DNA from: Acidobacteriota bacterium
GTDB lineage: Bacteria; Acidobacteriota; Terriglobia; UBA7540
NCBI GenBank assembly: GCA_004298155.1
Contig: SCRD01000016.1
Span: 62,001 to 126,000 of the forward strand
Reading direction: 5' to 3'
DNA: 64,000 nucleotides
Shown: piece by piece, positions 5,158 through 8,419 of the stretch
How positions within the stretch are numbered: position 1 is the stretch's first letter
Layout: every line of letters starts with the position of its first letter
Notes under the pieces: model-generated
Told to the model about the DNA's origin: nothing
Databases searched by the model: none
Seen by the model: the letters and a program-made list of their open reading frames with translations, nothing else
Position numbers and translations under genes: made by a program

Positions 5158-5186
5158 GTAGCGCGGGCCTTTATGGCCCGCGGTAC
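5158..5186 (+). repeat. REP-like palindrome, forward copy (R1)
   Basis: GTAGCGCGGGCC-TTTAT-GGCCCGCGG forms a strong hairpin (GCGGGCC/GGCCCGC). It matches the copies at 5806 and 8251 and is the reverse complement of the type at 5249, 5951 and 8308. Confidence 0.8.
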
Positions 5187-5193
5187 TTGTCTC

Positions 5194-5226
5194 TGTAGCG
5201 TGGACCTCCGCTCTGGAGGTCCGCGG
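5194..5226 (+). repeat. REP-like palindrome, divergent forward copy (R2)
   Basis: Starts TGTAGCG and ends CCGCGG like R1, but the stem is different (GGACCTCC/GGAGGTCC), so the edges are conserved while the stem has changed with compensation. Confidence 0.65.
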
Positions 5227-5248
5227 CCCTTTTGATCGAGGAGCCTAA

Positions 5249-5278
5249 GTACCGCAGGCCCTAAAGGCCTGCGCTACA
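5249..5278 (-). repeat. REP-like palindrome, inverted copy (R3)
   Basis: ACCGCAGGCC-CTAAA-GGCCTGCGCTACA is the reverse-complement orientation of R1, about 60 bp away, giving a head-to-head pair of the REPIN type. It ends three bases before the stop codon of the small membrane protein at 5282. Confidence 0.8.
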
Positions 5279-5281
5279 GGC

Positions 5282-5770
5282 TCAGAACGGCCGCCACTGG
5301 TCGCTTGAAACGTACACGCTCTTGCCGTGGCCGGTGCTGTTGTCTTTGAGCGACAGGCAATAGAGCTGGCCCTTGTTGAAGCTGGCCTCGAGCGTGTGGC
5401 CCGTGCCGATCCAGGTGAGGTGCAGGCCGCCGGCAAAATCGGTGGTGCTGGTGTCGGCCCCGCCGAGCGTCTGCTGCACCTCCGCGACCTGCGGAGTGCC
5501 TCGCAGGCTTTGCGGATGCGTCCTGCCGACGCCGGGCGCTTCCACCATGCGGCTCGAATCCTCGGCAACCATGGAGTTGAAGAAATCCTGGATGCGGCTT
5601 TCGCGCTCGGCAACTTGCGCCGCCGCCTGCTCCTTTTCCATCCGCGGGGCGTAAATTTTGACGTAGGCCAACACAGCGGCCACCGCAGCCAGGACGGCGA
5701 GCTGCATAATAATCACGCGCGTTGAGATTTTGCCGGTGTCGGAAAGGGTCAAAGTGCTTTTCCTCCGCAT
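5282..5770 (-). CDS. Membrane-anchored protein of unknown function
   Basis: A 162-residue protein I do not recognise. It has a short basic N-terminus, one transmembrane segment at about residues 19-41 and a Glu/Gln/Ala-rich helix after it (about 44-60). A soluble domain follows, in which GLHLTWIGTGHTLEASFNKG looks like beta strands. The topology suggests a single-span anchor with a periplasmic domain. The only start seen (ATG at 5768-5770) has a GGAGG about 14 bases upstream, a poor spacing, so the true start is uncertain. It is flanked on both sides by REP-like palindromes and has no obvious operon partner. Confidence 0.55.
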   Translation of the reverse strand: MRRKSTLTLSDTGKISTRVIIMQLAVLAAVAAVLAYVKIYAPRMEKEQAAAQVAERESRIQDFFNSMVAEDSSRMVEAPGVGRTHPQSLRGTPQVAEVQQTLGGADTSTTDFAGGLHLTWIGTGHTLEASFNKGQLYCLSLKDNSTGHGKSVYVSSDQWRPF

Positions 5771-5805
5771 CGAGTAGGGGAGCCCTCCGGGTTCCCGTGG
5801 GTTTT

Positions 5806-5834
5806 TGTAGCGCGGGCCTTTACGGCCCGCGGTT
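5806..5834 (+). repeat. REP-like palindrome, forward copy (R4)
   Basis: TGTAGCGCGGGCC-TTTAC-GGCCCGCGGTTC, the same sequence type as R1, with an uninterrupted GCGGGCC/GGCCCGC stem. Confidence 0.8.
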
Positions 5835-5895
5835 CTTTCTTAAAACAACTATTACAAAAACTCGATCCAAAACCCCAAAATCAAAACCTGGAACT

Positions 5896-5919
5896 GCAGC
5901 CCGCAAGGGCCTGCGCTAC
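5896..5919 (-). repeat. REP-like palindrome, partial inverted copy (R5)
   Basis: A shortened copy (GCCCGCAAGGGCCTGCGCTAC) that keeps the GCGCTAC edge but has lost part of the stem and the loop. Confidence 0.5.
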
Positions 5920-5950
5920 CGTGGCCTCTGCATCTTTTGTAAACCAAAAA

Positions 5951-5978
5951 CCCGCAGGCCGTAAAGGCCTGCGCTGCA
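5951..5978 (-). repeat. REP-like palindrome, inverted copy (R6)
   Basis: CCCGCAGGCC-GTAAA-GGCCTGCGCTGCA, the inverted partner of R4. The edge reads GCGCTGC instead of GCGCTAC. Confidence 0.75.
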
Positions 5979-6221
5979 CCAGCCGCCTGATTTTCCACTC
6001 ATTATTCGAATTTGTAATTCGTAATCGATTTTGCTCCCCGCTCGTCGCTCACCACTGCTTTTCTAGTTTTCCTTTGCATTTGAGTTTGTTGAGGCGTATA
6101 TATTTGCAGGCAATTGTGCGGTTATGGTCGGCCTGTTGGGCTGCGAAGGGTGCGGTGGATGCCCCCGGCACAAGGTGAGAGCCGACATAAGCCCATAAGG
6201 AGGCGGCTAGCAGTTCAGCGA

Positions 6222-7628
6222 ATGTCCACTACGCCAGCGCAAATTGACGATTGGTTGTCTTCTCCAAGCGAGCTTCCACAGCTTGAATTTAAAGAGGCCA
6301 AGGACTCTTTCAGCTTGGAGAAGCTATTTCAATACTGCGTCGCCATTCATAACGAGTTAGGCGGCAAATTAATCCTTGGTGTGTCGGACAAACATCCCCG
6401 CAAGGTCGTTGGGAGCAGTTCGTTCAAGAATCCGGTCAAGACAGCTCAGCAAATCCTAGACAAGCTTCATTTTCGAGTAGACATTGAGGAAGTAAATCAC
6501 CCACAGGGAAGAGTCCTAGTTTTCCTTATTCCACCTCGGCCTGTAGGAACGCCTTGCAGCTTAGACGGAGCCTTCCTAATGAGAAACGGCGAAAGTTTGG
6601 TAGCGATGACCCCTGACCATCTTCGAACTATCTTTGACGAAGGTAAACCAGATTGGTTAGAGGAGCACTCAAAGAGCGGTCTGGACGATGGCCAGGTTGT
6701 GGATCTGCTTGATACTCAGACATTTTTTGAATTGATTCGGCTTCCGTATCCCACAGATCGCGGTGGCGTCATTCAGCGTCTCATGGAAGTGAAACTTGTG
6801 GACCTCCTAGATGGCGGCTACGCAATCCGAAGGATGGGCGCGTTGTTGCTCGCAAAGCGCTTGGACAGGTTCCCTGAACTAGCGAGGAAAGCCCCGCGAG
6901 TTATTACATACTCCGGAAACTCTAAAATGGAAACCAATGCCGACTTTCCCGGAAACAAGGGATATGCCGTGGGGTTTAACGGGCTAGTGGAGTTTGTTTC
7001 CAGCCGCTTGCCACAGAATGAAACGATGGAAGGCGCGCTGCGCGTCTCCGTAAAATTGGTTCCCGACGATGCCATTCGAGAACTTCTTGCCAATGCGCTT
7101 ATCCACCAAGATTTCATGCGCAGGGGAACGTCCATGACTGTGGAAATCTATGCCAATCGAGTAGACATCTCGAACCCGGGGGAGCCCATTGTTGCGGTCG
7201 AACGATTTATCGACGGGTGCCAGTCGCGAAACGAACGCTTTGCCAGCTTGATGCGCCGATTCGGAGCGTGCGAGGAGAAAGGCAGTGGAATTGATCGGGT
7301 CGTAAGAATGGCCGAGATTTACCAGTTACCCGCCCCAGACTTTCGCGCTGGATTAAACAGCACTATGGTTACAATTTTTGGCGGAAGAAAGTTCGATCAA
7401 ATGGACCGGCAGGACCGAGTGCGCGCCTGCTACCAGCATTGTGCCCTTAAGTGGGTTATGTCCGAAAGAATGACTAACGAAACACTGCGAGAGCGCTTCA
7501 ATCTACCGAAGGCGAAGACATCAATCGCCTCCCAAATCATCTCTCAGACCATCGAATCAGGATTAATTCGGCCCGAGACGATAGGTGGATCAAGGAAATA
7601 TGCACGATATGTGCCGTTCTGGGCATAA
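6222..7628 (+). CDS. AlbA_2 (Schlafen-like) / HATPase_c_4 putative regulator
   Basis: A 468-residue protein. The N-terminal AlbA_2 domain (about residues 14-130; LEFKEAKDS and GGKLILGVSD are typical) is the divergent DNA-binding/Schlafen-AAA_4 fold. The middle and C-terminal part carries a GHKL-type domain of the HATPase_c_4 kind (IRELLANALIHQDF, then VDISNPGEP, and EEKGSGIDR), followed by a winged-helix-like tail (about 400-468). Relatives are annotated as transcriptional regulators or ATP-dependent helicase-like proteins; some sit in defence islands. The start is uncertain: ATG 6222 matches the domain start, but AAGGAGG is 19 bases upstream. Codon use is clearly more AT-rich than in neighbouring genes and it lies among REP-like repeats, which suggests acquisition. 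It has no operon partner here. Confidence 0.75.
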   Translation: MSTTPAQIDDWLSSPSELPQLEFKEAKDSFSLEKLFQYCVAIHNELGGKLILGVSDKHPRKVVGSSSFKNPVKTAQQILDKLHFRVDIEEVNHPQGRVLVFLIPPRPVGTPCSLDGAFLMRNGESLVAMTPDHLRTIFDEGKPDWLEEHSKSGLDDGQVVDLLDTQTFFELIRLPYPTDRGGVIQRLMEVKLVDLLDGGYAIRRMGALLLAKRLDRFPELARKAPRVITYSGNSKMETNADFPGNKGYAVGFNGLVEFVSSRLPQNETMEGALRVSVKLVPDDAIRELLANALIHQDFMRRGTSMTVEIYANRVDISNPGEPIVAVERFIDGCQSRNERFASLMRRFGACEEKGSGIDRVVRMAEIYQLPAPDFRAGLNSTMVTIFGGRKFDQMDRQDRVRACYQHCALKWVMSERMTNETLRERFNLPKAKTSIASQIISQTIESGLIRPETIGGSRKYARYVPFWA

Positions 7629-7824
7629 ACTTTATTTAAATTGCGGGTTCGCGAAAACGACCCGATTATGGCTAAGTTCTTTTCTATGTGTAGGATTCTT
7701 ATTTAAGCGGTTTTAAGCTTGCGTTCTTGGAGGACTGCCACAGGGCACAGAGAAGAAAAGATCCGCGGAGTAATGCGCTCGGCGCATAACTCTTCCCTAT
7801 CGACTAGCAATTTGCGGGTGTGCG

Positions 7825-7846
7825 GCAGCGGCGCGTTTACCTCGCC
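7825..7846 (+). repeat. Short palindrome, forward, GCAGCGGCG type
   Basis: GCAGCGGCGCGTTTACCTCGCC resembles the reverse complement of the element at 7862-7884, with an imperfect stem. The TTTAC loop is shared with the R1/R4 family. Confidence 0.5.
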
Positions 7847-7861
7847 ACGTGCGGGACCCGA

Positions 7862-7884
7862 TGGCGGCGTAAAGCCGCCGCTAC
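7862..7884 (-). repeat. Short palindrome, inverted, GGCGGCGTAAAGCCGCC type
   Basis: GGCGGC-GTAAA-GCCGCCGCTAC shares the GTAAA loop and GCTAC edge with R6/R8 but has a different stem, so it looks like a second subfamily of the same element. Confidence 0.6.
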
Positions 7885-8000
7885 GGGGAAGGCCGGAGGT
7901 GGGGACACAGTGCATCGGCCGGGCTGAATCCCGGCCCTCCTAAGACGCCATCCTCAGCCGCCGAAGAAGCGCTGGCCGCGAGGGCCTTCAGTGCGCGCTG

Positions 8001-8231
8001 CTACCGGGCTTTTTCTGATGTGCGGCTGGCGATCCAATTCAGGATGCCGAGTGCCGGGACCCAATAAGGGAAAATTCCGTAGAGAGTGTCGCTCACGGAA
8101 TGCGAATAGCAGTCAATGGCCAGGAAGGTATTCGCGCAGAACAGAAGCGTGAGAACCACGGCCAGCCATCCCGCCGCCGAAACCGGCGCGTAAATCCATT
8201 TCCAGGGCTTGAACCAGATTTGATTCTTCAA
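8001..8231 (-). CDS. Small two-span membrane protein, unknown
   Basis: A 76-residue protein of unknown function. It has two hydrophobic segments (about residues 14-38 and 48-65) joined by a short polar loop, a Lys/Trp-rich N-terminus (KNQIWFKPWKW) and a charged C-terminus (RTSEKAR). It starts at TTG (8229-8231), chosen because GGAGGAG sits six bases upstream; no ATG is available. It lies between REP-like elements, and I see no partner gene. Confidence 0.55.
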   Translation of the reverse strand: MKNQIWFKPWKWIYAPVSAAGWLAVVLTLLFCANTFLAIDCYSHSVSDTLYGIFPYWVPALGILNWIASRTSEKAR

Positions 8232-8250
8232 GAGGGGCTCCTCCGAATTC

Positions 8251-8276
8251 TGTAGCGCGTTCTTTACGGCCCGCGG
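8251..8276 (+). repeat. REP-like palindrome, forward copy (R7)
   Basis: TGTAGCGCG-TTC-TTTACGGCCCGCGG, the R1/R4 type with a partly degraded 5' stem arm. Confidence 0.7.
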
Positions 8277-8307
8277 CTCGTCATTTGAAATAACATCTAA
8301 GAACTAA

Positions 8308-8337
8308 GAACCGCAGGCCGTAAAGGCCTGCGCTACA
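8308..8337 (-). repeat. REP-like palindrome, inverted copy (R8)
   Basis: GAACCGCAGGCC-GTAAA-GGCCTGCGCTACA, the inverted partner of R7 31 bp away. It lies just upstream of recJ. Confidence 0.8.
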
Positions 8338-8419
8338 AATCCCGGTGGTGGGAGATACCGGCGCTAGAGCATTTGCCGTTGCAACCCTTCGCGCGAACTG
8401 TCAACATGATCTTCACGCG

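What the first reader, a model, noticed from the sequence alone, without database searches (positions are those of the whole stretch)
5158..8337. Cluster of REP-like palindromes in inverted pairs, with changing stems
At least eight elements share a GTAGCGC outer edge and a TTTAC/GTAAA loop: four forward or variant (5158, 5194, 5806, 8251) and four inverted (5249, 5896, 5951, 8308). They occur as head-to-head pairs 30-110 bp apart, the layout of REPINs. A second subtype (7825/7862) keeps the loop and the GCTAC edge but has another stem, and R2 has a wholly different but compensated stem. All lie in non-coding gaps around the AlbA_2 gene and two small membrane genes. A REP-associated transposase (RAYT) could have spread them, but none is in the window. 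Such elements may also shape transcript ends or bind gyrase/IHF.
Basis: partly seen in the sequence, partly recalled or inferred. Interest (0 to 1): 0.6.

Follow-up and report, generated by a model that had tools for sequence, protein, structure and literature searches.

The report
REPIN cluster from several RAYT families
A cluster of tiny inverted DNA hairpins near a bacterial repair gene belongs to three families of small, probably mobile elements that go with dedicated transposase genes elsewhere in the genome or in a sister species; it is a known kind of element.

Summary
Ten hairpin arms lie at window 5158-8336 in intergenic gaps; seven fold well, three are decayed. They form three GTAG-tagged families: A (seven arms), B (7825/7862) and C (R2). 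Pattern lists give 200 arms genome-wide (A 48, B 101, C 51; reversed-pattern controls 0); 153 have a neighbour within 150 bp; adjacent pairs are HH (GTAG outside) 58, HT 25, TT 8. RAYT genes exist outside the window: family A arms surround an intact RAYT on contig C10, family C arms one on C18; family B REPINs flank a RAYT in a sister species, of which only a fossil remains here. The last pair in the window is a copy of an 85-bp REPIN whose spacer recurs at three other places. Unlike arms are paired in 30 of 30 family B dimers. Of 33 RAYT-like segments, 20 lie inside an inverted GTAG-hairpin pair, against 0.15% of random segments, and REP sequence tracks RAYT sequence. So these are GTAG-type REPINs with RAYTs: a known kind, a new member. 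Movement itself was not shown; no clean empty site was found.

The parts
5158..5183 (+). R1, family A arm (stem CGCGGGCC, loop TTTAT)
   Evidence: -12.6 kcal/mol, z -4.39
5195..5226 (+). R2, family C arm (11-bp stem with one G-T pair)
   Evidence: one of 51 genome matches; z -5.21; same A-then-C order with 11-bp gap at C17:91813-91881
5252..5277 (-). R3, family A arm (stem CGCAGGCC), inverted partner of R1
   Evidence: z -4.70
5807..5832 (+). R4, family A arm (stem CGCGGGCC)
   Evidence: z -4.21
5894..5919 (-). R5, decayed family A arm
   Evidence: z -1.13
5952..5977 (-). R6, family A arm with tag GCAG
   Evidence: z -4.26
7825..7847 (+). R7, decayed family B arm (tag GCAG)
   Evidence: (z 0.01)
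7862..7884 (-). R8, family B arm (GGCGGC before the TTTA loop)
   Evidence: z -2.97
8252..8276 (+). R9, decayed left arm of an 85-bp family A REPIN
   Evidence: (z 0.01), 73, 74: spacer identical to C17:93669-93754
8311..8336 (-). R10, family A arm, right arm of the same REPIN
   Evidence: (z -4.69)

Best explanation
The cluster is a set of REPINs (inverted pairs of GTAG-tagged REP hairpins) of three families that were copied into the same intergenic gaps. Each arm is a GTAG tag plus a hairpin; two arms, mostly unlike, in inverted orientation make the copied unit. Inferred: a RAYT (HUH/Y1 tyrosine transposase) binds tag plus hairpin on single-stranded DNA, cuts beside it and rejoins the unit elsewhere; binding, cutting and strand transfer are known in vitro for TnpAREP of E. 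coli, and cutting for those of Stenotrophomonas and Marinomonas (PMC8266576 passages). Family A most likely goes with the RAYT at C10:37050-37589 and family C with that at C18:109874-110389. Family B most likely belonged to a RAYT now reduced to a fossil at C7:63415-63561 but intact in sister genome G038. Shown: sequence, pairing, association with RAYTs, recurrence of one whole unit. Inferred: transposition, and which RAYT moves which family.
For: Counts: A 49 rows (48 after dropping one reverse reading), B 51 rows and 80 with both arm types allowed, C 51 rows; reversed-pattern controls 0. Pairing: 91 adjacent pairs within 150 bp, HH 58, HT 25, TT 8; 153 of 200 arms have a neighbour; in the earlier list of 150 arms 50 adjacent pairs against 0.78 for random positions. 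Unit copy: the spacer of 8252-8336 recurs with 0 substitutions in 25 nt at C17:93.7 kb and C13:26.6 kb and with 1 at C17:95.3 kb, in different outer flanks (held stretches only). RAYT: the C10 protein scores 102.3 bits on NF047646 (cut-off 80) and matches PDB 4ER8, TnpAREP, at 6.8e-19. Of 33 RAYT-like segments in 28 loci, 20 have an inverted GTAG-hairpin pair around them, 7 one properly placed arm, 6 none; random segments 0.15%. RAYT against REP distance: 27 RAYTs, Mantel r 0.45, 0 of 5000 permutations. Family B: a G038 RAYT (90.4 bits on NF047646) between two B REPINs; five relatives of it at 55-62% identity carry B-like REPs, four at 40-46% carry GTAGCGCCG types.
Against: No insertion with a matching empty site was seen: in the held stretches the DNA upstream of recJ has no counterpart in the two genus relatives, and the C8/G038 comparison is not clean. 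Family A REPs occur in G037 (13) and G038 (9), but no close C10-type RAYT was found there; best matches are 54% and sit among other REP classes (assemblies 93% and 98% complete). The window's genome has no intact close relative of the B RAYT. Under the strict rule the C10 RAYT itself counts as one-sided: its nearest left-hand arms point the other way (four on the left, three on the right within 400 bp). Six of 33 segments had no properly placed arm: three had no GTAG hairpin within 400 bp (one of them 2 bp from a contig end), three had hairpins in other orientation or distance. Arms and RAYTs are related to each other, so P values are rough.
Confidence: 0.93

Rival explanations
1. The hairpins are host regulatory parts (terminators or mRNA 3'-end stabilisers) multiplied by selection and segmental duplication; RAYTs are incidental.
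For: They are strong hairpins in gaps; several sit just behind permease genes, and some of these look like gene-plus-REP duplicates.
Against: Two of the four gaps in the window (5771-6221, 8232-8419) are divergent promoter regions, not gene ends. RAYT-like segments are inside inverted pairs in 20 of 33 cases against 0.15%. An 85-bp unit recurs in unlike flanks.
Confidence: 0.05
2. A variant of the best explanation, not exclusive of it: the elements are REPINs but no longer move; RAYTs are domesticated and copies now spread only by recombination or gene conversion.
For: 3 of 10 window arms are decayed; the B RAYT is a fossil in this genome; A REPs stand without a close RAYT in G037 and G038.
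Against: 36 of 45 family A matches in G000 fit the (degenerate) pattern without mismatch, the C10 RAYT frame is intact, and one REPIN spacer recurs unchanged.
Confidence: 0.25
3. Chance palindromes in a GC-rich genome.
For: None found.
Against: Shuffles and reversed patterns gave 0; hairpins per 1000 tags: GTAG 41.6 against 1.8-10.6 for nine other tetranucleotides.
Confidence: 0.005

Closest known systems
GTAG-tagged REP superfamily (Di Nocera et al. 2013, PMC3733652; abstract, sections 5, 14, 16 and passages seen)
   Same: GTAG tag at one end, stems of 6-13 bp, HH dimers mostly 20-100 bp apart, preference for heterodimers, repeat-specific RAYTs, TAG of the tag serving as stop codon.
   Different: For Acidobacteria the parts I saw describe transposases with unrelated terminal inverted repeats (TIRtrons), not GTAG REPs. 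Its Figure 1 is not held, so a match to one of its 24 families was not checked.
REPINs with RAYTs (PMC3116915, search listing only; PMC8049555, passages)
   Same: Inverted REP pair as a non-autonomous unit beside a RAYT gene; genomes with and without the RAYT both keep copies.
   Different: Several families share one genome and one set of gaps; sister genomes keep different RAYTs.
TnpAREP systems of E. coli, S. maltophilia and Marinomonas (PMC8266576, passages)
   Same: C10 RAYT is a sequence relative of E. coli TnpAREP (4ER8); family A and B arms are plain stems with short loops as in the group 3 systems, and family B has the TTTA loop of the Marinomonas REP.
   Different: Marinomonas REPs have a 5-bp stem set 2 bases from the tag; binding and cutting are untested here.
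Class 3 TnpAY1 proteins (PMC6006769, section 10 and passages)
   Same: HUH/Y1 proteins found in Acidobacteria, with high-copy flanking structures (about 600 in Solibacter usitatus).
   Different: The C10 RAYT has a YIxxNP motif, not the Y....Q signature of class 3, and GTAG REPs as flanks.
RepRanger survey (PMC12306157, passages)
   Same: Counts REP-like palindromes in three Acidobacteriota genomes (5,307, 7,776 and 3,109), so REP-like repeats in the phylum are in print.
   Different: The term RAYT does not occur in its main text, and GTAG occurs only once, in a reference title.

Membership tests
GTAG REP superfamily | GTAG tag within 0-2 nt of a stem-loop, many dispersed copies | tested here: met
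GTAG REP superfamily | HH dimers predominate | tested here: met
   HH 58 of 91 adjacent pairs
GTAG REP superfamily | Mostly intergenic | tested here: inconclusive
   met for the 10 window arms; not scored for the other arms
REPIN | Inverted pair plus spacer recurs as one unit | tested here: met
   one 85-bp family A unit, same spacer at 4 places; 9 family B dimers in G000, spacers mostly not the same
REPIN | Mobilised in trans by a RAYT | not testable with these tools
   needs strain polymorphism or an assay
RAYT / TnpAREP | HUH motif, tyrosine motif, curated family score | tested here: met
   HWH and YIHMNP in the C10 protein; NF047646 102.3 bits over cut-off 80
RAYT / TnpAREP | Gene flanked by its own REPs | tested here: met
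   for A and C; for B in G038; for the set (20 of 33 both sides)
IS200/IS605 TnpA | Score over the NF033573 cut-off (55) | tested here: not met
   no match listed for C10 and C18 proteins; 22.4 bits for C16:999, 19.6 for C16:267 kb
Class 3 TnpAY1 | Y....Q motif | tested here: not met
   C10 protein read against the table passage

The most novel reading that the evidence does not exclude
In this bacterial family a functional REPIN is as a rule a heterodimer: the two arms are distinct end types (family B: one arm with C, one with G before the TTTA loop), as the two ends of an IS200/IS605 transposon are distinct, and the RAYT needs one of each; like-armed pairs are dead ends. Di Nocera et al. say that the preference for heterodimers has no obvious explanation and suggest that unlike arms escape hairpin-cutting enzymes; the two-end reading is the rival to test.
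Probability: 0.3. Interest if true: 0.55.

Novelty: new member of a known kind. Interest (0 to 1): 0.38.

Why it matters
It shows GTAG REPINs and several RAYTs together in a probably acidobacterial genus and offers a natural experiment: sister genomes differ in which RAYT they keep (A here, B in G038), so the fate of a REPIN population after loss of its transposase can be followed. The 30-of-30 heterodimer count makes the two-end question directly testable in vitro.

Tried and rejected
A first pattern for R2 found nothing, not even R2 (the gap was written too short); one search replaced it. Empty-site tests: at recJ nothing upstream of window 8370 is conserved in the held stretches of G037 or G038; at one site near the C8 RAYT, G038 has a RAYT flanked by REPs where G000 has none, but neighbouring genes differ too; at C7:61-68 kb synteny also stops close to the REPs.

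Stop codons: of 142 GTAGCG hairpins in held stretches (relatives included), frames of 150 or more open codons end on the tag's TAG in 18 cases against 4 and 3 in the other phases. Against it: some of these frames are spurious (one is antisense to recJ), 2 of 10 frames sent to Pfam had a domain, permease paralogs are partly duplicates, and GTAGCG or GTAG[AT] words in general also show phase bias, though towards another phase.

Heterodimers: over all HH pairs the tests for A and C are weak (A 2 homodimers of 10, P 0.09; C 1 of 11, P 0.017). The cut at gaps up to 61 bp (A 8 of 8, C 10 of 10 unlike) was made after seeing that the three homodimers have gaps of 99, 100 and 119 bp. One of the eight A pairs (C16:67807/67894) has a decayed arm. 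The pair R1/R3, split by R2, is not in that count. In one search one of 49 family A rows (reverse reading of the arm at C16:67252) was dropped.

Class 3/TIRtron membership was rejected on the Y motif. Searches of the held papers for reports in Acidobacteria: 2 papers; 8 listed; 20 of 48 listed; general ones. No GTAG REPIN/RAYT report for this genus was seen there; subscription papers are not held and the genus is unnamed.
Full report
What was checked. They fall in the four gaps around a 162-aa gene, a Schlafen AlbA_2/HATPase_c_4 gene, a 76-aa gene and recJ. Window shuffles gave no match to the family A patterns. In 460 kb of held sequence (partly chosen for REPs), hairpins stand behind GTAG at 41.6 per 1000 tags, against 1.8-10.6 for nine other tetranucleotides. 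Folding supports 7 of 10 window arms; 5894, 7825 and 8252 are decayed.

Three families. Family A (GTAG, stem CGCRGGCC) has 49 pattern rows in the 5.21-Mb genome, one of them a reverse reading; family B (GTAG, CGGCGGC-TTTA) 51 rows, and 80 when both of its arm types are allowed; family C (GTAG, stems with GGACCTC or AGACCGC) 51. All reversed-pattern controls are 0. R2 is family C and 7825/7862 is family B; the other seven arms are family A. The merged lists hold 200 arms; 153 have a neighbour within 150 bp; adjacent pairs are HH 58, HT 25, TT 8. The lists are limited to what the patterns reach.

Units. The pair 8252-8336 shares its inner spacer with C17:93669-93754 and C13:26573-26658 without change in 25 nt, and with C17:95313-95391 with one substitution; the outer flanks differ (held stretches only). 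The triplet R1-R2-R3 has a counterpart in the same order at C17:91813-91971, which carries one further arm. So whole REPINs, and perhaps a composite, were copied.

RAYT genes. The genome has 7 matches to Y1_Tnp (PF01797), none in the window; the C1 copy has an internal stop. That on C10 (37050-37589) is open and has family A arms on both sides, inside two similar blocks of about 300 bp (block length by eye); its TAG stop lies in the tag of the next REP. It scores above the NCBIfam REP_Tyr_transpos cut-off and matches TnpAREP, PDB 4ER8. The C18 RAYT lies between family C arms and the C16:999 RAYT between arms of another type, GTAGCGCAGAGTT.

Relatives. 39 genomes of the same family were searched. 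Family A (up to 1 mismatch) occurs in 6: 45 in G000, 13 and 9 in the two genus relatives, 1 each in three others. RAYT-like matches occur in 35 of 39. In 28 loci chosen by RAYT similarity, with 33 RAYT-like segments of 96 or more aligned residues, 20 lie inside an inverted GTAG-hairpin pair, 7 have one properly placed arm, 6 none; 30 of 33 have some GTAG hairpin within 400 bp; random 520-bp segments of the window's genome score 0.15% for both sides. The C10 RAYT counts as one-sided under this rule. RAYT and REP distances correlate (27 RAYTs, Mantel r 0.45, 0 of 5000); recent paralogs may inflate this.

Family B and its lost RAYT. In G038 a RAYT (C3:101328-101840; NF047646 90.4 bits, cut-off 80) lies between two family B REPINs. 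In the window's genome only a fragment matching its last 47 residues, 64% identical and with a stop inside, was found, at C7:63415-63561, directly before a family B REPIN. Of nine other relatives of this RAYT examined, five at 55-62% identity have family B-like REPs beside them and four at 40-46% have GTAGCGCCG types. REP type thus changes with the RAYT lineage.

Heterodimers. Thirty exact family B dimers from 9 of 39 genomes (the pattern allows equal arms) contain no pair with equal last stem dinucleotides; 7.7 are expected from shuffled arms, P about 3e-5; 29 of 30 join a C-type with a G-type arm; one sequence occurs twice. In family A 8 of 10 and in family C 10 of 11 HH pairs have unlike arms; the three like pairs have gaps of 99-119 bp (weaker statistics, see Tried and rejected). 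Di Nocera et al. report the preference in most of their families, call it without obvious explanation, and suggest protection from hairpin-cutting enzymes. One relative (L167) has only equal arms beside its RAYT, which speaks against an absolute rule.

Reading. The cluster is a landing zone for REPINs of three families around a low-GC AlbA_2 gene (about 50% GC) that is not found upstream of recJ in the held stretches of the two genus relatives. How RAYTs act is taken from the literature (PMC8266576 passages: cutting at CT, role of GTAG) and was not tested here. The organism is probably an acidobacterium: the nearest named RAYT is from an Acidobacteria MAG at 49% identity, and a permease beside a REP belongs to the ADOP family, recalled as typical of Acidobacteria. 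This is an inference.

Noticed in passing
window 6222-7628: AlbA_2 + HATPase_c_4 gene of about 50% GC among neighbours near 60%; not found upstream of recJ in held stretches of G037 and G038; possibly acquired. Not searched elsewhere in those genomes.
   Followed up: partly
L048 9980-10755 (C16:266980-267755): RAYT-like gene with six direct, not inverted, copies of a GTAGCAC hairpin (GTAGCACRGCCACTCYTGGCYGTG); in-cluster spacings 43, 29, 43 and 43 bp; a 73% relative in G038.
   Followed up: partly
L010, L014, L015, L022, L057 (two), L029, L141: Permease genes ending ...RYE-TAG whose stop is the TAG of a family A (four) or family B (two) tag; in L029 and L141 the tag follows one codon later. 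L010 and L015 look like duplicates, as do the two in L057. One such protein was tested and is ADOP.
   Followed up: partly
L053 8415-8561 (C7:63415-63561): Fossil 3' end of the family B RAYT beside a family B REPIN.
   Followed up: yes
window about 8370; L054 6504 (C17:91504); L053 near 8330 (C7:63330): Detected synteny with genus relatives stops next to REP clusters at several places; REP-linked rearrangement or only fast-changing gaps.
   Followed up: partly
L040 6968 and 7017, L053 11393: A further GTAG type in this genome, GTAGCGCCGGGCTTCAGCCCGGCA and a variant; the same or nearly the same hairpin lies beside RAYTs in G016 and G001.
   Followed up: no
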